From positions 1 through 16,971 of the forward strand of contig CAJVPP010001962.1 in the NCBI GenBank assembly GCA_910592005.1: DNA of 16,971 nucleotides. Reading direction: 5' to 3'. The stretch's first letter is position 1. Each line of letters opens with the position of its first letter. Below the pieces are notes generated by a model. It worked only from the letters and a program-made list of their open reading frames with translations. It was not told where the DNA came from and ran no database searches. Positions 2,041 to 15,829 of the stretch are shown one piece after another. The translations under genes and the position numbers were made by a program. This stretch comes from Funneliformis mosseae. Taxonomy: Eukaryota > Glomeromycota > Glomeromycetes > Glomerales > Glomeraceae.

Positions 2041-3520
2041 ATGTGATGGTGATAAAGGGAAGCCTGTGTTAGTGAAATGTAATTTTCAATCATTGAATGA
2101 GATGTAGTTGAGGTTTTCAAATGATTTGATGTTATTACAACGATCAAACCAGATGGATTTTATATGTGAGAATACATGATAGTAAGTAGAAGATAGGAGG
2201 CTGTTTATTAATTAGATATTATTAATAAGGCAGTGTGTTTTGTTGAATAGAGGAAGGAGTATAATTCCTTTGATTAAGTCAATAAAGTTAAAAGAATCAG
2301 GTCGATCATTTAGGAACCAGATGGTCAAATCTAAAAGATCTGTAAAATCCTGAGTGTCAAAGGCTAATGTAGTGAGATATTGTATGAAAAAATTTTTAGT
2401 TGAGGATATAATGTCAATGAGTTAGTGTGCAACTTTGGCACAAGTCCAAACGTAGTTAAAAGTTTCATAAGTACACAAGCATCTAGGATAATTTTATGAT
2501 TGGTCATACAGATTCAGGTATCTTATTTTAAGGATTTCTAATATAGAGAGCAATTCAAATATCAGTTTAATTTTAAATTTGCGAATGGAAGAAACTTTGA
2601 AGGATATATAAAAGTTGTTTTTATTATCATTAAGGATGAAGGAAGTCTGAATCTAATCAACATCTATTTTATTATATTTCTTGAAGTTGTATATTATAAA
2701 AATCGATTGATCTGAGAAGATCTTTTACAAACAATCTCAGTAGAATGAGTACAATATCTTCTTTAAAATATAGATTATAGTGATACCCTAGAAATTTGTT
2801 GTCTGGTATAATTAGAGGACCATCAGCTTTAGCTAATGCGTCAACTACATTATTAAAATAATTATTTGAGTGTGCTTTAACTTTGTGAAATTCAATGGAT
2901 ATGAATTTTTCTCTGATTAACTTTATGATAAGAAACCAAATTGGATAGAAGAAGATTTTAAAAATCGGGTTAAAGGTGGGAGAGAAAGTGTAGAAATAGT
3001 TCATTTTATCAAAAAATGAAATGATATTTTGTAAATCTGTGAAAATATTGACTGCGGCATTTGTAGAAGCTACATATATAGCAAATAGTACTGCTACTAA
3101 TTCTGCTAGAGAAGATGAAGGTTGGAGAAGAATGAGTGTAGCATTAAAGAAAAGTAGAGGTGCTGAAGGCTCAGATTGCAACTAGACCACGCCCATACAG
3201 ATTGAAGAAGTACCTAAGTTGATAAGGGAACTATCAGTATAAAATAAGAGGTTAGTTGATTGTATGAAGTGACTTTTGAGATTATCTAAACTATTAAGAA
3301 TTTCTATATTAAATAATTGATCAGTAGTGAAGGAAGGAAGGGATAAAATAGAGGGACCAATAGGTGTATTATTATCTATTAAATGATAGCTATGTAAAGC
3401 AATTTCATAAAGCATGTAGAGAAACAACAAACAGATATGATCAACATTTGGAAGAAGAGGAGCTTTGATGTTAGCACACAGGTGTAAAGGAAGAATTACA
3501 AAGCAAGCTTCATGTTTATT
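2041..3520 (-). pseudogene. LINE ORF fragment: RNase H domain and Cys-rich tail, broken
   Basis: Two blocks in one minus-strand frame (about 3523-3185 and 3181-2672) are separated only by a TAG at 3182-3184. Together they form an RNase H fold. The catalytic acids are all visible: Asp in FYTDSSL near 3234, Glu in SLAELVAV, Asp in NIFTDLQ, and Asp in NNVVDALAKA. A His lies in HKVKAHS. After a frameshift near 2640 the protein goes on to about 2041. That part holds a Cys-rich stretch (RCLCTYETFNYVWTC, about 2425-2475) and a second block around IWFDRCNNIKSFE. Further TAA stops interrupt this tail. The apparent Met at 3521-3523 lies in the duplicated target, so the original protein extended upstream. 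RNase H would remove RNA from the RNA:DNA hybrid during retrotransposition. This copy is not functional. Confidence 0.85.
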
Positions 3521-4120: not shown

Positions 4121-4290
4121 AAAATAATGATGAGGGATGAAACCCCTTAATAACAGTCAAAACTTAGACGAAACTATATTAAAATCATAATAAGGGATAC
4201 GACAAAATCCTTTCAATACAACGAAAACTGAAACTATCGAAACTATATTAAAAATATAGAAAAGGATATGACGAAATTATTTTGAGAAGA
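4121..4290. repeat. Degenerate tandem repeat, about 65-70 bp unit, with GACGAAACT motifs
   Basis: Roughly two and a half copies. Each begins near ATAATRAGGGATR, continues through an ACGAAAxCCTTT-like segment, and ends with GAAACTATATTAAAA (seen near 4170-4185 and 4238-4253). A third, shorter GACGAAATTAT copy follows. Base composition is less A/T-monotonous than the surroundings. No coding frame runs through it. I read it as a minisatellite-like repeat, function unknown. Confidence 0.6.
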
Positions 4291-5194
4291 TTTTAGCAGA
4301 TATCTATATTATAAAATATTATATATTGAAAATTAGTTCAGTTTATATAAAATTTTGAATTAAAAATATGTTATTCTATTTTATTTGTTAAAGTATATAA
4401 TTCTAAAGACTATAATAATTTTATTAAATAATCTAATAATTATTAATAAAGTATTATATAAAAATATTATCAGATCTATTTATAAAAAAATATCTACTTT
4501 CATATCTAATTGCTTATATAATAACATTATATATTATAAATTAATCTTCATTTAATAAATCTTTAAATTATATAATATAATATAATTTTTTTTCACAAAT
4601 TAATTGATTTAAGTTATTAATATTTAGTAATATTTTAGAAAACTAACATATTTAGAAAATCTTTAGCAATTTTTATTAAGTAAAAATATTCTTTTAATTA
4701 ATAAAATATCTTCTATTTAATTATATTATTTATCCTGATCAAATAATTCAAATCATCTAAAATTAAATGATTAAATTTAAGCTGATTTTAATACTATTTA
4801 TAGCTGATTGATCATGTTTTCTGATTATCTAAATTACTACTAATTGATTCAAATTCAAAAAAAAAATTATTTAATATTATAATTAAATTTTATTTAGCAT
4901 TAATTTAGACTTAAATATAAAAATTAGCCTATAAGTTAGTATCAATTTAGTCAAATAAGCATATAAAATTAATATATTTTATTTAATTAAATTTATTAAA
5001 TATTAAAATTTTATTAATAATAAAAACATATTATAAATATGTAAAAAATACAACAAAAATATTACTAAATTTTATTAACTAATTTCTTATTAAAAAATAA
5101 AAAAAAAATAATATAAAAGATAATAAAATAATAAAATATAATCTATTTTCCTTTCATAATTCCTTGAGATTATTCTAAATATAATATTATTACT

Positions 5195-5580: not shown

Positions 5581-7336
5581 TTATTATTTATTATTGTTTA
5601 TTATAAGATCTTTTTTACTTTTAATAGTGAATGATATACTTTTTTAATTCTATAAATTCTTAATTTTTCATAATATATTTTTAGTTATAATATCTGCTTC
5701 GACTTTAGTATTATAAATTATATCAATTTAAGCTTTATATAACTATTTTAGAGTATTAATAAGATATAACTAATCATAACTCTATACATTATTTTCATTT
5801 TTGTTACATTTGTGATAATAATTAAATACTAAAATTAAGTACTTTTCAGAAATATTTTAGCTAATAATAGAAAATAAGAAAAAATATTAAAGAAATATAC
5901 TAAATAAATTTGAAAAATGTTAAAATTAGATAATAAATCTCAATTATTCATCATAAATAATCATATATAGTAATAACTAGAACATAAAATAGAATATAAA
6001 ATTTTCTAAATAAATATCTAGTTATATAAAAATTTATCAGAATTTTTTAAAATTAATCAAAAAAATATTCAGTTTAAAATTTATATTTTTTAATATATCT
6101 GAAAAAATATTTAATTCTAAAAAAAATTTATTAAATATTAATTGAACTCTCTTATCTATTTTGCTAATTTTAGGTAAATTATATTGATAATTATTAAATA
6201 TTTAAAGTAAAAATTACTGATCTATTTTACAATTCATTTATTATTTTGCTTAAATAAATATTTTGTAATCTTTACTTACTAAATTTTTTTCTAATAAATA
6301 ATAAATAATAAATAATACTAAATTATTAATTCAAATAGGCTCAAACTTAAAAGTTATTCTATTTGCTTATATTATATACTCAATTATTATTATATATTTA
6401 CTGCTACTTTAAATGATCTTTTCTATTTTCTTTTTCTTTAAACTAATCAATATAATTTATGAAGAAATTTTAATCAATTTATTACAAAAGACTAATAATT
6501 TAAAACTAGATTTTCATAATTTTAAATTAGATTATAATATTTTTTTAGTATTTTCTTGCTATTAAAAAATTTGTTATAATTCAAATTGTTTTTTATATAA
6601 ATAATTTTCAAAATTACTTTCATTTCAACTTAAATATGAAAAACTGAAAAAAAATTTAAATATTTAAATATAAATTTAAATATATTCTGCTCTTTTTACA
6701 TTAATCTCTTCTATTACTAAATTATTGTTATCTTTAAAATTATTTTATAATAATTCTAATTTATTATCAATACAATAAACTAGTCTTTTTCTTTTGATTT
6801 TAACAAATAATTTACTGATTTTTTTATTTTATAGGAGAATTGTTATTTAATTACCTCAACAATTTAAATAGTTGTATTTTTCAATCAGTCAAATTTAAAA
6901 TATTAAAAAGAAAAATTAATTATTTGTAAATATTAGGATATTATTATAAAAATTTTTATTTTACTTATAATTATCATTTTTTTGCTAAATTTTTTATTAA
7001 TTTTAGTAAAAAATCAACTTTTCTTTAAAAAATTAAAATTTTACTACTGTAATTTCTTAATATTTTTACTAAATTTTACAAGCTTTTCTTTCGTTAAGGT
7101 TTAAGAAAATGAACTGATAACTTAAATGGTAAAGAAAAAGACTAAGAAAAATATGATAAATTTTATAAGCAGAAAAATCTTATTCTGCTATACTATATAA
7201 TAATAACTTTAAACTAGGTAAAAAGTAAATCTTCTGGCTAACTATCACTAAAAATTCAATTCAGTATATCTAAAAAGACTTCTGATAATAGTTTTGATTT
7301 ACTGATATATTTTAAAATATATTATAGCATAATATT

Positions 7337-7544
7337 AGTAGGTAGTAATCTTATAAGACTACAGTCAACTCTTGTTATAACGAACTCTATGTCCTAGACC
7401 TCAACTTCGCTATAAGGCTATAGTGAAGATTTTAAGAGATTTGATTGGCCAATTCGCTATAACAAGAGTATTTTTATTATATTTGTTTAAAAAATTCGTT
7501 ATATCAAGAGTTCGCTATATCAAGAGTTGACTGTATTACCTACT
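7337..7544. repeat. Palindrome at the left outer edge of the large element, split by the MITE
   Basis: With the MITE (7362-7533) and one TA removed, AGTAGGTAGTAATCTTA is followed directly by TAAGACTATTACCTACT. The two halves are inverted copies with 15 of 17 positions matching, centred on CTTA|TAAG at 7350-7357. The right half runs into the terminal sequence of the large inverted repeat at 7541. Looser mirror symmetry continues to the left to about 7311. Confidence 0.6.
7362..7533. mobile_element. MITE of Tc1/mariner-pogo type, 172 bp
   Basis: It starts with CAGTCAACTCTTGTTATAAC and ends with the inverse, GCTATATCAAGAGTTGACTG. TA is duplicated at 7360-7361 and 7534-7535. It is too short to code for anything and would have been moved in trans by a transposase of the TA-targeting superfamily. 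Near its right end a 16-bp motif, TTCGYTATATCAAGAG, is repeated in tandem (7495-7510 and 7511-7526), with a third copy at 7453-7468. These could be transposase-binding sites. Confidence 0.85.
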
Positions 7545-7570
7545 TGTGTTATAATGCTATCTACTTATGG

Positions 7571-8322
7571 TGTTACTGGATTCATTTTCATTTATCTTAA
7601 CATCTAAGTTAAGTGATTATAGCAATTGATTCTATATGTTAAAGTTTCTAACCTTAGGATTTTTCTCTAAGCTCTACAGGTATCTGTTATACTTGAATCA
7701 ACTCAGCAATTTATTACGTCTTAGAATTTAAGATATATTTAATCAAACTTGTAATGACGAACTCAATAGCAAGTTAGTGTAAGATATCACAATAATCCTA
7801 GATGAGAAACAACGTTGAAGAAAAAGTAGTTTGTATAGATTTAAATTAATTCCTTTATTTATAATACTGAAACTCGTAAATAACTTACAAATGAGTTAAT
7901 TTATTTGCAGAGGAGTTAATTTACAATTAAGCAAAAAGCTATTCTATTTATACAAAATTAATTTACTATGGCTAACTACTTATTATGCTATAAATTAACT
8001 AAATATAGATATATATTCTAATAAAAATATACTTAAATATAATAAAATGATAAAAATAATATAAACTATAAAAATAATAAAAAGAAATAAAATAAATTAC
8101 AGATATTAAAAAAATTACAGGCGAAACAGAATAACAGGCTGTACAGAAAATACAGAAGAAATAAGCAAATCAGATGAATTTTGTAAATCCTTCAAATTAA
8201 ATAAATTAGTCTAATTTTCTAATGTAATACATCAATCAAGATCTTCCTTAATATGATCTACATAAAATTAAATCTAATGACTTTGTAAATTTTTTTTTTA
8301 GGGTAAATTTTCAATGCTGACA
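7571..8322. mobile_element. Solo LTR inserted in the left arm
   Basis: This 752-bp block is absent from the right arm of the inverted repeat, where the flanks are joined (ACTTATGAGTATAC). It begins TGTTACTGG and ends GCTGACA, the TG...CA boundary of an LTR. It is flanked by ATGG at 7567-7570 and ATGG at 8323-8326. No internal retrotransposon genes or second LTR are present, so recombination between two LTRs probably left this one. A four-base duplication is short but within the range known for LTR elements. Retrotransposon family and orientation are not determined. Confidence 0.78.
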
Positions 8323-9233
8323 ATGGGTATACTGCTACTTATTTATATATTTTTGATACTCTATGCTCTTTTTATAGTTAAATTAATATTCATTCATTTT
8401 TAACACTTTGTAATTATTTGATTACTGAGTAGAATAAAAATCTTTTTTTCAGTTTGTAATCTTTTAGTTATTAGAAGAGAATGAGGCTTATTTTCCTGCT
8501 CTATTACCTTTTAGTTACTAAGATTTAAATTTAGGATACTTACTCTTTATGCCTATTTGGTTACCTTTCTAGATACTAAAATGTGATAAAAAATATTGCA
8601 TCAAGTGGCGCAATAAATCTGTAATTGATTTCAGCTAACATTATACTATAATTTTGACTGATCTTTAGGATACGTGATTTGAGGATTTAGCTTAATAATT
8701 CAATGGTATTATGATAGTATCATGGAATTCTCCTAAAACTATTATAGAATTGGCATAGAATTAGAATAGTTCTATTAGTTTGCCAGTTTTAGATCACCTA
8801 TATGCTAACTTGAATGCTGAGTTATTATGTTCAAAGATCTAATCAATTTATAGAATAGTATTAGCCAAAATTATTGTAATTTACCATACTTATTACACCA
8901 GTTACATAATTTTCATTGATCTGTAGATCAGAGAATTCAAAATGCAAAAAATAAAAATATTGCTAATATATAGTTAATATATGTTGATTTTATAATAAAT
9001 AAAATTAAATTCAGGTTTATTCTTTATAATTTTTACTATGTATTAAGTCATATATCTTACTCATGATCTTAGATTAGTCAATAATATAATAATATTCTCT
9101 TTTTCTATTATATTGTAAATGTGTTCTATCAATATTAATTTAGAGAAATTTCTTTTTATCTTAGTTTCTGTTCTAGCTCATTCAAGAAAACTTAGACAGA
9201 TTTTCTAAGATGGATTTTTGTTCTCACCAGCTA

Positions 9234-9535
9234 TCACTAGTATCACTAATTTTGAATACTAACTAGTAACAAAATTAGTGATACATTCATTATGCTTATT
9301 ATGATTATTAGATTATTTTATTTCTTTCTTGATTAATATCACTAGTGTCACTAGTGTTACTAGTAAAAAGTAGTAAATCTAAGGAAAAAATTGAATTTTT
9401 TCTAATATTATCTTCTATGATATAGTATAGTATATATATTGATGTATGTATAGTATTTATATGCTATATAAAAAAAATAAAAAAATAAGTCAAGAACTTC
9501 AGATTTTTCTAGTGATGCAAATAATACTAGTGATA
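9234..9535. repeat. Cluster of CACTAGTG motifs in the left arm
   Basis: TCACTAGTG occurs at 9339-9347 and 9348-9356, followed by TTACTAGTA at 9357-9365, an exact 9-bp period. Single or variant copies lie at 9234-9242 (TCACTAGTA), 9509-9515 (CTAGTGA) and 9526-9535 (ACTAGTGATA, opposite orientation). The core is itself palindromic. The right arm has a matching cluster. Repeated short palindromic sites near an element's end are typical of binding sites for a replication initiator or transposase. That role is inferred. Confidence 0.65.
9241..9283. repeat. 14-bp perfect hairpin in the left arm
   Basis: TATCACTAATTTTG (9241-9254) pairs exactly with CAAAATTAGTGATA (9270-9283) across a 15-base loop. 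The equivalent hairpin in the right arm is at 14804-14846, where one T-A pair is replaced by C-G. Confidence 0.75.
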
Positions 9536-9840
9536 CCTATAAAAAAGCTTTCTTTTAGTCTAGAATTTCTAAAAAGTCTATCATCTTATCATTAGTTCTG
9601 TCACCAGCTTTTTTTCTAATAACACCAGTAATAAGTTATATTATTTTTATTTACCTTTAAATTACCTACTAGTATTTACATTGAAGCTAAGTATACCAGC
9701 TTTTCTAATGATAATATTCTTTTGATCTATATTTTTTTGCATGCATATTATAATATTCATATTTGGATCTTGTTGACTCACCACATTCTTTACAAGAAAC
9801 TTACCTAAAATTCCTATAAACTTTACATTCAAATACAATA

Positions 9841-9860
9841 ACGGTCATAAGTATCTGACC
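9841..9860 (+). repeat. Left terminal inverted repeat of the Tc1 copy
   Basis: It is paired with 11077-11096. Internal similarity weakens beyond 20 bp. Confidence 0.93.
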
Positions 9861-10005
9861 ACTTGAGATTATCTAAAATTATTATATAATTACCCTTTAA
9901 ATTTTTCAGAAATATAATATAACATAATACATAATCACCTGTAAATTTATAAGTGTCAATGATACAAAAAAAAATTTAGATGATCATCAAACTTTCACTT
10001 GAAAA

Positions 10006-11001
10006 ATGGAACTTTCTTTAGAGAAACAATATGAAATTATCTTTTTACGTGAGCATTCAGCTAGTCTAAAATTTAGTTTTAGGTTTATTGCTAAACAGAT
10101 ATGTTGTAGTAAATCTACAGCTATTTATTGGATTAAAAGATATCATAAAAATCAGAACCTAAGTACTTCAGAAAGACCAGGATAGCTTTGTATAATATCC
10201 GCAAAATAAGATAACAAGATTGTAAAGATGGCAGAGAAAAAACATAATATAACAGCCATTCAAATACAAGAAAAAATAGAAGAAAGAAGTGTTAGACTTA
10301 GTGTAGAAACAGTAAGATGACGTCATTATAAGTCTGAAGGAAAGTTTAGTAATAAAATTTCTAAACCTTTGCTTAAAGAAGACCATTGAAAGAAAGGTTG
10401 CAATAGGCAAAAAAATAAGAATTTTGGTTGGAATCGAGTTGTTTTTACAGATGAGAATACATTTCAATTATATACATCAAAAAAAAAAGGTTTGGCAGTT
10501 TTCTGGTAGAAAAAAAGTGTTTTGTTTTGTTAAGCATCCACCAAAAGTTCATGTTTAGGGATGTTTTTTTGCTTCTGAATTTGATAAGCTATTTTACTTT
10601 CAGAGGAACCTTAATGCTGAATTTATGTATACTTTTTATGAGCAGGGTCTTCTGGCTTTCATCTTTAAACTTTTTGGTGAAGATAACATAGATTGGATTT
10701 TACAAGAAGATAATGATCTAAAGCATCAATCAAAAATTGCAAAAAAATGGAAGGAAGAAAATAGCATTGAAGTACTTTCTTAGCCACCAATGTTTTCAGA
10801 CCAAAACTCTATAGAAAACGTTTGGAGATTAATGAAAATTAATATACAAAAAAAAAAATTTGATTAATTAGAGGATTAAAGGAAAAACTTACAAAAGAAT
10901 GGAATTGATTATCACCTGTATTTGCTGTTAATTTGGTAGCTAGCATGAAAAGGTGTACAACTGCACTTATAGAGTCAGATGGTGACTACACAATGTATTA
11001 A
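10006..11001 (+). pseudogene. Tc1/mariner transposase, DD34E, inactivated
   Basis: The ATG at 10006 opens with an N-terminal helix-turn-helix region containing IAKQICCSKSTAIYWIKRY, the DNA-binding part that recognises the inverted repeats. The catalytic acids are visible: Asp in VVFTDENTF (10450-10452), Asp in QEDND (10709-10711) and Glu in IENVW (10814-10816). The last two are in the same frame with 34 residues between them, the Tc1 spacing. The protein ends at TAA 10999-11001 after NLVASMKRC. At about 332 codons it has the normal family length. It is broken by TAG, TAA and TGA codons and by indels in A-runs, for example near 10480-10490 between the first and second Asp. It would have cut and pasted the element at TA sites. 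Confidence 0.92.
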
Positions 11002-11076
11002 TTTTAGTTAGTTGATTATGCATTTTTTAAATAAAAAAATTTTTGAATTTACTTACTTGTAGCTGGAGTTAAAGGC

Positions 11077-11096
11077 GGTCAGATACTTATGACTGC
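11077..11096 (-). repeat. Right terminal inverted repeat of the Tc1 copy
   Basis: Inverse of 9841-9860 with two mismatches. TA follows at 11097-11098. Confidence 0.93.
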
Positions 11097-14000
11097 TACT
11101 ATATATTCATTAGGATCATCTTCTATCTTTTTTACATAACCATATATTTGAACATCAGTCTCTATCCTATTCTGGAATACAATAGAATCAAGTTTATTCT
11201 TCTCTGTGATAATTATGAAGGCATCTGAATTTTTACCAAGTTTGACTGCCTTTTTTCTAAGATACTTTTCTCACTATTGTCTAGCTGAAGATGTGAAAGA
11301 AGCTTTTTTATTACTGATTCAATATATTTAGAAGACTTATCAATTACTGCCTCAGAAGGAAATTTTTTATCGCTAAGACTAATAGTCTTCAGGAACTTAC
11401 TCTTAGCGTCTTCAGCAGATTCTTTAGAAGTTTCAGATGTTAAGACAATTAGAACTTCTACTTATTCTGCTATATAATCAAAAAGAGCTTAAATCAAATT
11501 ATTCTATTTATCCACTTTCTTATTTCTTAGATAAAGATTCTTTTCTGGCTGAGATGAGATTATTTTTGGAGGAATAATTTCTAGCATATTGAATATGATA
11601 TGTCTGTGGTCTCATTGATAAGTAACTTATCTTGAGGTATATCAAAGAACTCCTCAATATTATCTAGGCGGATTTACAGAGCTTAGCCATAATTTTGAAG
11701 CAGTTAAGAATATATTATCATTCCCTTTTTCCACTACTCACTTGTGCCTGTTTATACTCAATACTAATATATAGGAATTTCTTGTTGAGGATATTATTAG
11801 AAAACAGTTTTTCACTATTCTTTTCACACTAGGTAAGATATTCTTGATATAATAATGTACGACTTGACTTGACTATACTATTCTCAGCCCAAGATGTAAT
11901 ATAGTCAATTATAAATTGAATAGGATTAGGAAGCTGATCATGCATTGTATCTATTTTAATTTTTGTAAAAGGAAATTTTTTCTGGTTTGAATTTTGATAA
12001 ATTACGATTAAGAAGGTATAACATGACTACTTTTAGCATATTAAGATGATCTAGAATTCTTTTTAATCGATCAAATATGATATATTACTCTTATAGTATA
12101 ATAAAACATTAAAACAGATAATACAAGAATCACTTATATCTATTTTGAGTGGGATATTCTGATTGCTTGTTACCATCCAATTAGTAAAGTCTTTTGTTCA
12201 TTTGATTTTAAGACCTTTTTGCTTTATAGCTATTCTTATTTCTGTTATGAGGGATTTAAAATGTCTGTTAAATCTATATCATTCTCTGCTAGACATTTTA
12301 GTTTTATTTATAATAATAAGCTTTCAGACTTAAATGACACTATTAAAATACCCAAAAATTTTTTCAAATCTGATATAGTAAAATAAAGATGTTATCTCAA
12401 GACTTTATTACCAATAAAATCTATGATAATATTTTTCTATACTGTTGTAGTATGAATTTTAGTACTAAGATTATTTAAGGCTTTTTCTATGATTTCTATA
12501 CCAAATGTACTTACCAATTTCAGATGTATTCATTAAGCTCTTCGTTACTATTACAGATAATATTTTGTACATATTAGAGAATCAGATTTATAATTTTTTT
12601 ATTAATTTCTATCACTAGTTTAGCCAAAAATCCTAAAAAAATATTAAAGAAACTTGTATTTGGTTGGAAGACATTTATGGAATATAGGAAGAAATCATAA
12701 TTTTTATAAACTATTAAGTCTTTGATAACTATCTGGTCTATCAATAATTTTAATTTCACTGCTTTACCTTCATATTTAATTATTTTAATCTCAAACTTGA
12801 TAATCTTTAGTTCAGCTTTCATATCAAAATAAAGTTTATTCTTTAAATCTTTATGCTTTAGTATCTATATTGGTATTTCTTCTGAATATAGGCAACTGTT
12901 ATTTGAATTGCTTTATAACTTCAATAAAAAAGAGAATTTTTTATCTGAAGTATACATACATATTAAATCCTATCATATGAAATGATCATTTGGATTTGAA
13001 ATCCTGAATTACTTTAATCTAATAGGAGCTGGTAGGTTTTTTGTTAACTCAAAACTAATTTGCTAAGGATAAGCTTTATTAAAGACTTTCTTGTCTTTAA
13101 TTGTCTTTCCTGATTTATATGGTAGCAATAAAAACTATAGAATTTTTTATTTCGTATAATATATGCATTTTTATTAATGTATTTCAAATTATACAATGAA
13201 TAATATAATAGGATTATACATTTAAAAGAAAAGATGTCAGAAGATATTTCTGATGAATATAAGAGGTTGAATCCTTCAATAGTGATCTCTCAAAGCAATT
13301 TTTCTATTAGTTCAAGATTGAGTTCAGTTTTGGTAGTTTTATTATTTGTATCATTACATCTTCTGATTTTCAGCTTTAAAATAGCTAAAAGAGGACTTTT
13401 TATGACTTCTGATTCATTATTGGACAGATAAAGCATAAAGTTGAAGATTATTTCATCTTTTGGAAAAATAGCTTTTTTTATACAAACGTATTCTTCAGTC
13501 TTTTCAATGAATTTGGATGTTCTAACTATCTGTAAGGAAAATAATCATTTATTTGTGATATTATTGATAATACTATTTCTTTACAATCCTTCTGGAAGTT
13601 TTTTACGAATGAGCTCAATGAATATTCTAGTCTAAGTAATATTTTAAAGTCTCATACTAAAAGTTAAGATATAGAGAGATATTTTTTTTGCATCACTACT
13701 TTTGATAATAGTTATAGTTTTTTATCACATTTTGAAAATATTTCTAAACAAGTATTTTTAAAGGAATTGCAGAATAAATTTTTGCTTATTTGTCTGAAAG
13801 TTTAGAGAAAATAGTATTTAATGTCTCTACTGGTAAATCAAAATTTATAACAGAATAAAGTGACTCATCTCTATCTATAAACTCATGTAAGAAATGGCCT
13901 TCACAATCTGAAAATATAACCTCTATTTCATTTTCATTGTTTATATTAAGGAAATTTTTTGGTCTAATACTATTATCACGAATTTTATATGAGTATTGGC

Positions 14001-14209
14001 TAATATTAGAGACTTTAAATCTATAATATTAAGGGTAAGGATATCAAAGAACTCGAAAAGCTTAGATTAGATCATTTTTTTTGAAAGTTTTATAATTATA
14101 CTAAATTTTAAGATATATTTTTTACAAGAAAAAATTTAAAATGAAATTAATTCTCTGATATTATTAATTGATATATACAAATAGGAGACAGAAAAAAATA
14201 ACCACCTGA

Positions 14210-14404
14210 CATTTTTATTATTGTCTATATATTCTTAAGACTAGAGAAGTGTGCAATCGAAGATGTTATCATCCATTTAGATGTAAACTTTATAGGAATT
14301 CTAGGCAAATTTCTTGCAAAGAATGCAGTGAGCTAACAAGATCCAAATATGACTATTGCAATACATATGCAAAAAAATATAGATTAAAGGAAAATTATCA
14401 TTAG
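14210..14404 (+). pseudogene. Second copy of the C-terminal Cys-rich finger, right arm
   Basis: The open frame follows a TGA at 14207-14209, has no Met, and ends at TAG 14402-14404. From about 14275 on it matches the finger at the end of the primase-helicase gene in the left arm (CKLYRN, ISCKEC, SKYDYC, AKKYR). Both copies share the terminal YH-TAG. Upstream the sequence differs from the primase-helicase gene and adds Cys residues (CLY, EVCNRRC, FRC), giving a pattern close to C-x3-C-x5-C-x10-C-x2-C-x11-C. It may be the last exon or decayed end of a second gene reading outward, or a duplicated gene end. I do not recognise its function. Confidence 0.55.
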
Positions 14405-14477
14405 AAAAAGCTAGTAGACTTAGCTTTGACGTAAATACTAATACATAATTTAGAGATAAACAAAATAATACAATTTG

Positions 14478-14756
14478 TCACTAGTGTTACTAGAAAAAAA
14501 GCTGATGATAGAACTAGTGATAAGATAATAAGCTCTAAAAATTCTAGACTAAAAGAAAGTTTTCTTGACAAATGTCACTAGTATCACTCACATCACTAAA
14601 AAAATCTGAAGTTTCTAGCTTACTTTTTTTATTTTTTTTATATAGTATACAAATACTACATATATACTATATTATATTATAAAAGATAATATAAAAAAAT
14701 TCGATTTTTTCCTTAGATTTTACTACTTTTTACTAGTGACATTAGTGACACTAATC
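14478..14756. repeat. Cluster of CACTAGTG motifs in the right arm
   Basis: TCACTAGTG occurs at 14478-14486, directly followed by TTACTAG. Further copies are ACTAGTGA at 14513-14520, TCACTAGTA at 14575-14583, and two opposite-strand copies in TACTAGTGACATTAGTGACA (about 14731-14750). This mirrors the left cluster, but the number and exact spacing of copies differ, so the motif seems to have been kept while the array changed. Confidence 0.65.
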
Positions 14757-14803
14757 AAGAAAAAAATAAATTAACCTAATAATTTTAATAAGCATAACAA
14801 ACA

Positions 14804-14846
14804 TATTACTAATTCTGTTATTAGTTAGTATTCAGAATTAGTGATA
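14804..14846. repeat. Hairpin in the right arm, counterpart of 9241-9283
   Basis: TATTACTAATTCTG (14804-14817) pairs with CAGAATTAGTGATA (14833-14846) with one wobble mismatch. Relative to the left-arm hairpin, one base pair has changed on both sides of the stem. Confidence 0.7.
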
Positions 14847-15782
14847 CTAATGATAGTTAATGAGAACAAAAATCCATCCTAAAAAATCTGTCTAAGTTTT
14901 CTTGAATGAACTAGAACGAGAACTAGGATGTAAAAAAATTTCTTTAAATTGATATTAATAGAACATGTTTATGATATAATGAAAAAAGAGAATATTATTA
15001 TATTATTAACTAATCTAAGATCATGAGTAAAATATATGGCTTAATATATAGTGAAAATTATAAAGAATAAACCTGATTTTAATTTTATTTATTACAAAAT
15101 CAGTATACATTGACCATATATCAGCAATATTTTTACATTTGTGTTTCAAATTCTCTGATCTATATATTAGTAAAAGTTATGTAACTAGCATAATAGATAC
15201 AGTAAATTATGATAATTTCAACTAGTACTATTTCATAAATTCAGCCAGATCTTTAAACATAATAACTTAGTATCCAAGCTAGCATTTAGGTGATTTAAAA
15301 CTGGCAAACTAATAGAACTACTCTAATTCTATGCCAATTATATGATAGTTTCAGGAAAATACTATAATAATATTATGGCACTATTGAGTTGTTAAGCTAG
15401 ATCCTCAAATCACGTATCCTAAAGATCAACCAAAATTATAACATAATGTTAGCTGAAATTAATTATAGATTTACTGTACTATCTGATGTAATATTTTTTA
15501 TTATATTTTGACATTTAGAAAGGCAATTAAATAGGCACAAAAGGTAAGTACTTTTAATCTCAATCTTAGTAATCAAAAGATAATAGAGCAAGAAAACAAG
15601 CTTCATCCTCTTTCAATAACTAAAAAGTCACAGACTGAAAAAAGATTTCTATTCTACTCAATAACCAAATAATTATAAAGCATTAAAAATGAATAGATAT
15701 CAATTTAACTATAAAAAGAGTATATAATATCAAAAACATATTAATAGGTAACAGTATACTCATAAGTAAATAGCATTATAAC

Positions 15783-15829
15783 GCAAGTATATTATATTTA
15801 AAATTAGCTTTAAATTTATATTAACTTGC
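15783..15829. repeat. Palindrome at the right outer edge of the large element
   Basis: GCAAGT (15783-15788) to TTTAAA (15797-15802) is mirrored by TTTAAA (15809-15814) to ACTTGC (15824-15829), with arms of 20 and 21 bp around ATTAGC. The left arm of this palindrome is the end of the right inverted repeat. The AT-rich middle makes part of the pairing cheap; the GCAAGT/ACTTGC ends are the stronger evidence. Confidence 0.5.

What the first reader, a model, noticed from the sequence alone, without database searches (positions are those of the whole stretch)
7541..15789. Possible undescribed element: 1.5-kb inverted repeats around a D5-like primase-helicase
The sequence shows two long inverted arms in register, with a single long gene between them that bears SF3 helicase motifs and a primase-like front. 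Once the LTR and Tc1 insertions are subtracted, the unit is about 6.2 kb with equal arms. Known TIR transposons encode a transposase or integrase, and I see none here. A primase-helicase with long inverted ends suits a linear replicon, a virus-derived element, or an element that borrows its integration enzyme. The gene family seems repeated in arbuscular mycorrhizal fungi as I remember them, but a TIR-bounded element is, to my knowledge, not a standard description of it.
Basis: partly seen in the sequence, partly recalled or inferred. Interest (0 to 1): 0.9.

Follow-up and report, generated by a model that had tools for sequence, protein, structure and literature searches.

The report
Decayed plasmid-like fungal mobile element
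The window holds a dead copy of a multigene mobile element that carries a virus-like DNA-copying enzyme and, in its relatives, what looks like its own integration enzyme; the striking inverted repeats are not its ends but a second, flipped copy of its front part joined on at a later transposon insertion.

Summary
The inverted arms are real: 1,517 bp at 82%. Between them lie a broken D5-like primase-helicase gene and a Tc1 insert (9841-11096); arm 1 holds an LTR-like insert. But the arms are not the family's terminal repeats. In the 9 other contigs listed for both leader and gene, the "arm" lies only upstream of the gene: it is a 5' leader with a small divergent Cys/His ORF. In the window, family homology stops at the Tc1 on both sides, so arm 1 is the front of a second, inverted copy joined there, in the genome or by misassembly. 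The family is unusual: 44 of 64 contigs with helicase matches carry a tyrosine-recombinase-like ORF downstream on the same strand, median gap 369 bp. One well-preserved D5 copy (L026) ends at left in repeats and a palindrome shared with a sister branch; the one sister copy read carries a herpes-origin-binding-like helicase instead. I read the family as capsid-less, plasmid-like integrating elements. The recombinase call rests on motifs, which most D5 copies may partly lack; the left end of most D5 copies and the right end are unresolved.

The parts
14275..15796 (+). Arm 2 = 5' leader of copy A (outer end at right)
   Evidence: continuous with the gene in relatives
14210..14404 (+). Remnant of the divergent small Cys/His-rich ORF
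   Evidence: ORF; better preserved in L017, L026, L035, L048
13777..14037 (-). Primase-like N-terminal part of gene A, 2 stops inside
   Evidence: E 1.5e-22; motif IIDFDL reads VINFDL here
12433..13736 (-). Middle of gene A: two overlapping matches in different frames, 11 stops in each
   Evidence: E 5.2e-62 and 8.2e-56
11100..12278 (-). SF3/D5-like helicase part of gene A, broken, cut short at the Tc1 insertion
   Evidence: E 3.0e-52 and 1.9e-13; nucleotide homology to L024, L025, L026, L035 and L036 ends at 11099-11101
9841..11096 (+). Tc1-like transposon, transposase remnants on + strand, TA on both sides
   Evidence: Sequence; ORFs 10003-10783; 92% copy of 251 bp of its end in L007
8323..9834 (-). 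Arm 1 = truncated 5' leader of a second copy B in inverted orientation; inner edge at the Tc1
   Evidence: in 14 of 16 loci with a match to this inner part homology stops at 9827-9831 (L020 and L023 stop earlier; duplicate L019 not counted)
7571..8322 (.). LTR-like insert (TG...CA, CCAT on both sides), probably a solo LTR
   Evidence: By eye; about 80% relatives in L016 and L023
7534..7570 (-). Outermost part of arm 1, beyond the LTR-like insert
   Evidence: I11
7362..7533 (.). Small pogo-like inverted-repeat element with TA on both sides, beside the outer end of copy B
   Evidence: By eye
7335..7361 (-). Possible outer half of a terminal palindrome of copy B (TCTTATAAGA, 10 of 10 with the core in L052)
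   Evidence: palindrome score reached by 74 of 2000 shuffles, so suggestive only

Best explanation
The window holds a decayed copy (A) of a high-copy, multigene integrating element, plus the inverted, truncated front of a second copy (B) joined to it at a Tc1 insertion. The order seen in other D5 copies is: a leader with a divergent small Cys/His-rich ORF; a primase-like domain and SF3/D5 helicase; a tyrosine-recombinase-like (YR) gene; a coiled-coil ORF; a retropepsin-like ORF; an LRR ORF. In one well-preserved copy (L026) the leader ends in repeats of about 22 bp and a palindrome. Shown: anatomy, order, copy number, and that left end for L026 and for sister copies. Inferred: the YR (its own or a sister's) excises or inserts the element, probably as a circle; the primase-helicase starts replication at the repeat/palindrome end, which resembles an origin; the element persists as an integrating plasmid-like replicon without a capsid. 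The window copy cannot do any of this.
For: Leader only upstream in the 9 other contigs listed in both; three more contigs with gene matches only in the protein searches agree (C52, C152, C193). Homology stops at the Tc1 on both sides; the gene tail seen in L026, L028 and L035 is absent from the window. Of 64 helicase contigs, 45 have a YR match, 44 of them same-strand downstream, median 369 bp (from 42, 43, 99). Helicase: DUF5906 E 1.6e-20, Pox_D5 over cut-off, profile hit to the solved chain 6k9c 'Primase', E 2.5e-6. YR motifs R, K, HxxR, H, Y line up in L026 and L031. Left end: of the 40 places scored, none but the query itself matches past position 352 of 391. Palindrome pattern: 57 places, 0 in the reversed control. 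In 12 YR contigs it lies 4.9-7.9 kb upstream of the YR, 11 of them 4.9-5.6 kb; in L026's contig the distance is 5.3 kb. The 3' LRR region lies same-strand downstream of a YR in 15 of 40 scored places.
Against: The YR has no plausible Pfam, NCBIfam or PDB match; its only profile support is phrog_1 integrase at E 0.054 for one piece. 40 of the 45 D5 contigs with a YR are matched by the L035-type YR, and in the copies of that type that I read (L035, L036, L037, and a piece in L027) the HxxR motif is missing: it may be inactive or no recombinase. None of the 12 palindrome-plus-YR contigs is in the D5 helicase or primase lists, so for the D5 branch the left end rests on L026 and on leader copies (L048 on C3718; C95 and C3832 also have both leader match and palindrome). 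The primase half matches no plausible family; its motifs are by eye. The 3' end was not found, and no empty site was shown. In 25 of 40 places the 3' region is not shown downstream of a YR. The coiled-coil, retropepsin-like and LRR ORFs could be host or other mobile genes.
Confidence: 0.62

Rival explanations
1. The inverted arrangement is an assembly chimera: two unlinked copies of the element, each carrying a Tc1, were joined through the shared Tc1 sequence. (This concerns only the arrangement in the window and is compatible with the family model.)
For: Both homologies stop at the Tc1. The inverted repeat stops at 7534 and 15796, so the outer flanks differ. The contig is 16,971 bp in a 4154-contig assembly. 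L007 holds a 92% copy of 251 bp of the same Tc1 end inside another copy of the gene.
Against: The two arms are sisters with 100/99 support among 17 leader rows, two of them the same locus, which a random misjoin would seldom give; but only part of the family was in the tree.
Confidence: 0.3
2. One reading: a TIR-bounded element whose 1.5-kb arms are its functional ends.
For: Equal arms in register, about 6.2 kb after subtraction; arms are sisters, as homogenised TIRs would be.
Against: 0 of the 9 other contigs listed for both parts show a second arm past the gene. No inverted repeat over 60 bp in L025-L028. In 8 copies read over 12 loci, no inverted leader lies past the gene's 3' end. The arm's inner edge falls inside the Cys/His ORF, at a Tc1.
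Confidence: 0.05
3. Endogenised virus (Polinton-like, virophage-like or NCLDV-derived), or a Polinton that lost its capsid, rather than a plasmid-like element.
For: SF3 primase-helicase and YR genes together are known from Polinton-like viruses and virophages (passages of PMC4642659, PMC12220804). Polintons without a detectable capsid gene are reported for Rhizophagus irregularis (passage of PMC7805220). D5-type helicase; retropepsin-like ORF.
Against: No capsid or packaging match among the ORFs scanned with Pfam; no relative in viral contigs with single YR, primase and helicase queries. Only selected ORFs were scanned; PolB and rve integrase were not searched for.
Confidence: 0.15
4. The downstream ORF is not a working recombinase but a protein of unknown function, so how the element inserts is unknown.
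For: No family or structure match; HxxR missing in the copies read of the type that accompanies most D5 copies.
Against: Ordered R, K, HxxR, H, Y pattern in the L026/L031 type; weak integrase match for L028; conserved place next to the helicase.
Confidence: 0.25

Closest known systems
Cryptons and other YR DNA transposons of fungi (Starships included)
   Same: A YR-like gene, no long terminal repeats seen, dispersed copies in a eukaryotic genome; Crypton families are reported in R. irregularis (PMC11075540, passages)
   Different: Those are recalled as lacking a primase-helicase; here a replication module, further ORFs and, in L026, a palindromic left end are present
Polinton-like viruses and virophages with YR and primase-SF3 helicase
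   Same: The pair primase/SF3 helicase plus tyrosine recombinase, and exchange of replication genes (PMC4642659, PMC12220804, passages)
   Different: No capsid or packaging gene among the ORFs scanned; no TIRs in the copies compared
NCLDV D5 primase-helicase and the DUF5906/Pox_D5 helicases
   Same: SF3 helicase with DUF5906 and Pox_D5 matches over cut-off
   Different: Primase half too divergent for any profile tried; context is a repeated element
Herpes origin-binding-like genes reported in Glomeromycotina (PMC10234402, one passage)
   Same: A PF02399 match lies in a sister copy with the same kind of left end and YR (C24)
   Different: There described as probable horizontally acquired genes; here seen, in one copy, as part of a repeated element
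Prokaryotic integrative plasmids (YR plus PrimPol/helicase)
   Same: Gene logic: integrase plus replication protein, repeats near one end
   Different: Recalled analogy only; an 82-Mb genome with LRR, Crinkler-like and retroelement genes, and different proteins

Membership tests
TIR DNA transposon | Inverted repeats at both ends in independent copies | tested here: not met
   Leader only upstream in the 9 other contigs listed in both searches; no inverted repeat over 60 bp in L025-L028
TIR DNA transposon | Target-site duplication round the arms | not tested
   Ends of the arms were not set precisely; flanks not compared systematically
Crypton-like YR transposon | Tyrosine recombinase with R..HxxR..Y | tested here: inconclusive
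   R, HxxR and Y present in L026 and L031, HxxR missing in L035, L036, L037; no profile or structure support
Crypton-like YR transposon | No terminal repeats, both ends defined | tested here: inconclusive
   Left end defined for L026 and sister copies; right end not resolved
Polinton-like virus / virophage | Major and minor capsid proteins and packaging ATPase | tested here: inconclusive
   No such Pfam match among the ORFs chosen for scanning; not every ORF was scanned
Polinton | Protein-primed PolB and rve integrase | not tested
   Not searched for as families in the genome
D5-type primase-helicase | SF3 helicase with D5 features | tested here: met
   DUF5906 and Pox_D5 over cut-off in relatives; window gene homologous to them
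D5-type primase-helicase | AEP primase N-terminal domain | tested here: inconclusive
   DFD and SLH motifs by eye (motif meaning recalled); no plausible Pfam or PDB match
D5-type primase-helicase | D5_N domain (PF08706) | tested here: not met
   0 matches in the whole own genome; the search rang in 3 of 14 control genomes

The most novel reading that the evidence does not exclude
A class of nuclear, capsid-less integrating plasmids in this fungal-type genome: an origin-like repeat/palindrome left end and a tyrosine recombinase form a chassis on which the replication module is exchanged (D5-type primase-SF3 helicase in one branch, herpes-origin-binding-like helicase in another), with retropepsin-like and LRR genes carried along; copies with a recombinase lacking HxxR may be moved in trans by the others.
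Probability: 0.3. Interest if true: 0.85.

Novelty: new variant of a known kind. Interest (0 to 1): 0.58.

Why it matters
If right, virus-like replication genes in such genomes (D5-type helicases, herpes-origin-binding-like proteins) would be working parts of repeated, self-replicating and self-integrating elements rather than stray viral gene transfers. It would give eukaryotes a counterpart of bacterial integrative plasmids, with a concrete end and enzyme to test. It also warns that long inverted repeats in a single copy can come from a later transposon joining two copies.

Tried and rejected
TIR reading: tested against other copies and dropped. D5_N family search of the own genome: 0 matches. 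Terminal palindrome at the window's own ends: copy B suggestive (74 of 2000 shuffles reach the score), copy A not significant (221 of 2000). Second palindrome at a right end: none found by the scan in the loci given to it. Of the 50 palindrome places listed of 57, only C285 has two, 34 kb apart. Right end from the 3' region: homology tapers without a sharp end; L057 and L058 are 90% alike throughout, so they count as one. Relatives elsewhere: viral contigs and prokaryote genome contigs gave none; phage records gave 6 weak matches for the helicase, best E 5e-9, and 7 for the YR, none better than E 4. The leader tree used 17 rows (L043 and L026 are the same locus); matches spanning under 450 bp of the query, and loci that repeat others (L001, L002, L008, L011, L013, L015, L017, L019, L022), were left out.
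Full report
1. The observation. The window is a whole contig, C1962, of an 82-Mb assembly in 4154 contigs. Self-alignment gives one strong inverted pair, 8323-9834 against 14275-15763, 82.4% over 1,517 bp, with an outer piece at 7534-7578 against 15752-15796. Arm 1 is split by a 752-bp insert (7571-8322) that begins TG, ends CA, is flanked by CCAT and has relatives at about 80% in two other loci. Between the arms lie a Tc1 (9841-11096) and a gene on the minus strand.

2. The gene. None of the seven gene pieces of the window scanned reaches a D5 or helicase Pfam model, but relatives in the same genome do. L017 has DUF5906 at 1.6e-20 and L015 has Pox_D5 at 7.8e-5, both over the curated cut-off; likewise L026 and L035. 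A profile of the helicase half finds the solved chain 6k9c, named Primase (from phage NrS-1, recalled), at 2.5e-6. The window gene is hit by the relative's two halves in five stretches, each with stops inside. The N-terminal half matches no plausible family, and D5_N rings nowhere in the genome. IIDFDL and SLH in relatives look like archaeo-eukaryotic primase motifs (recalled), and the window reads VINFDL. It is a dead copy.

3. The arms. A DNA search of the own genome with arm 2 scored 40 of 199 candidates, and with the gene 40 of 153. Nine contigs other than the window's appear in both lists. In these nine the leader matches lie upstream of the gene's 5' end in the reverse sense: 11 bp away in five, 101-108 bp in three, 3.3 kb in one. 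Three more contigs (C52, C152, C193), whose gene matches come from the protein searches, show the same order; C193 has a further leader piece over 30 kb away. Direct comparison shows alignments running from gene into leader, in L025 from 11461 to 14849 without a break. Four copies of about 10 kb have no inverted repeat over 60 bp. In 8 copies read over 12 loci no inverted leader lies past the gene's 3' end. Stray opposite-sense pieces of 43-106 bp were seen in L028, L007, L037, L038 and L024. The leader holds a divergent ORF with a C..C..GC..H..C..C..C..H pattern, best kept in L017, L026, L035 and L048.

4. The junction. Homology of gene A to the five relatives noted as reaching so far (L024, L025, L026, L035, L036) stops at window 11099-11101, and that of arm 1 at 9827-9831 in 14 of 16 relatives with a match there; the Tc1 with its TA pair lies between. 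The tail of the gene, which in L026, L028 and L035 runs some 30-50 residues further, and the YR are absent from the window. So A is cut in its tail and B in its leader, at one Tc1. The two arms have different outer flanks. On a tree of 17 leader rows (16 different) the arms are sisters at 100/99, 82.3% identical, each on a branch of 0.12. Two readings fit: two neighbouring related copies joined by recombination between Tc1s, or an assembly joined through the Tc1. I cannot choose between them.

5. The family beyond the window. In L026 and L035 the gene is followed by a 409- or 388-residue ORF. Searches with both (105 matches; 117 matches) and with the helicase half (112 matches on 64 contigs, 94 of 195 candidates scored) were compared. 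45 of the 64 contigs carry such an ORF, 44 on the same strand and downstream, gap 135-1047 bp except one of 3504 bp; one (C3348) is on the other strand; 19 have none, the window among them (capped scoring, so lower bounds). 40 of the 45 are matched by the L035-type query, five only by the L026-type. The L026/L031 type shows R(MRP), K, HxxR (KHACR, KHASR), H and Y in tyrosine-recombinase order (order recalled). It has no plausible Pfam, NCBIfam or PDB match, and phrog_1 integrase only at 0.054 for the L028 piece. The L035 type lacks HxxR in L035, L036, L037 and a piece in L027. Further on come a coiled-coil ORF and a retropepsin-like ORF (PF13975 at 0.0066, below cut-off) and LRR ORFs, co-linear by nucleotide match among several of L026, L027, L028, L035, L036, L037 and their continuations. 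The last region lies same-strand downstream of a YR in 15 of 40 scored places; one place is on the other strand and 24 are on contigs without a YR match.

6. The left end. L026 has repeats of about 22 bp and then a palindrome. Of the 40 places scored for this end (of 87 candidates), none but the query matches past position 352 of 391. Of the 14 loci fetched (L043 being L026 itself), a scan with at most one mismatch finds the palindrome in 10; in the other four I see it by eye with more mismatches. The flanks after it are unlike. In L052 it reads AACTGGATAACACTCTTATAAGAGTGTTATCCAGTT. The core occurs 57 times with up to 3 mismatches and never in the reversed control (50 places listed). In 12 contigs with a YR match it lies 4.9-7.9 kb upstream of the YR, 11 of 12 within 4.9-5.6 kb; in C2797 (L026) the distance is 5.3 kb. 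None of those 12 contigs is in the D5 helicase or primase lists. So for the D5 branch this end rests on L026 and on leader copies: L048 on C3718, with C95 and C3832 carrying both a leader match and the palindrome. Copy B of the window has a TCTTATAAGA core beyond its arm; the palindrome there is only suggestive, and that of copy A is not significant.

7. A sister element. On C24 the same kind of left end (88% match; palindrome in L044) and a YR with stops inside enclose not the D5 gene but ORFs of which one matches Herpes_ori_bp at 2.8e-6, over cut-off. Only this sister copy was read. A paper on Rhizophagus irregularis reports replication-origin-binding genes as probable horizontal gains in Glomeromycotina (PMC10234402, one passage).

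8. Literature. Nine searches of the held library listed no paper that I recognised as describing a YR plus D5-type element in fungi; I read listings and passages, no whole paper. One paper filters helicase-primase genes as transposon-related (PMC8647823, passages). Another did not detect D5 in five R. irregularis strains (PMC10640383, passage). Crypton families are reported in that species (PMC11075540, passages), as are Polintons without a detectable capsid gene (PMC7805220, passage). The pair YR plus primase-helicase is known in Polinton-like viruses and virophages (PMC4642659, PMC12220804, passages). Most subscription papers and bioRxiv preprints are not held, so absence here is weak evidence.

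9. How it most likely works. Shown: gene order, copy number, left end in L026 and sister copies. Inferred: recombinase activity, circular intermediate, replication from the repeat/palindrome end, capsid-less life. The window copy is a fossil.

10. Verdict. The family is worth attention for another reason: a replication module and a recombinase-like gene travelling together, in at least one copy behind an origin-like palindromic end.

Noticed in passing
window 2672-3181 (-): ORF with an RNase H domain (PF00075, 8.6e-7, over cut-off), remnant of a retroelement.
   Followed up: no
window 4125-4308: Short interspersed repeat: copies at 92% and 82% in L005 and 89% inside the primase-helicase gene copy of L036 (5041-5220).
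   Followed up: no
leader 649-748, i.e. window 14923-15022: A stretch of the leader matches the helicase gene in the opposite sense in L037, L038 and L024: an old inverted gene fragment or an antisense piece.
   Followed up: partly
L061, L032, L044 (C24): Sister element with the same kind of left end and YR but a Herpes_ori_bp-like helicase.
   Followed up: partly
L035 5634-6668 (-): ORF with NUMOD4 and HNH endonuclease domains between the YR and the coiled-coil ORF; no such ORF of 75 aa or more is listed there in L036 and L037.
   Followed up: no
L035 4437-5603, L036, L037, L027 7455-7610: YR type that lacks HxxR and accompanies most D5 copies.
   Followed up: partly
L028 816-865, L036 8221-8269, L037 7933-7970: Another long near-perfect palindrome shared by three loci, perhaps the end of a different repeat.
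   Followed up: no
L025 4691-4987 (-): Crinkler N-terminal domain match just under the cut-off (23.8 against 24.6 bits).
   Followed up: no
L047 422-1099: DDE_1 transposase ORF (PF03184, 3.5e-18) within 1 kb of a palindromic left end.
   Followed up: no
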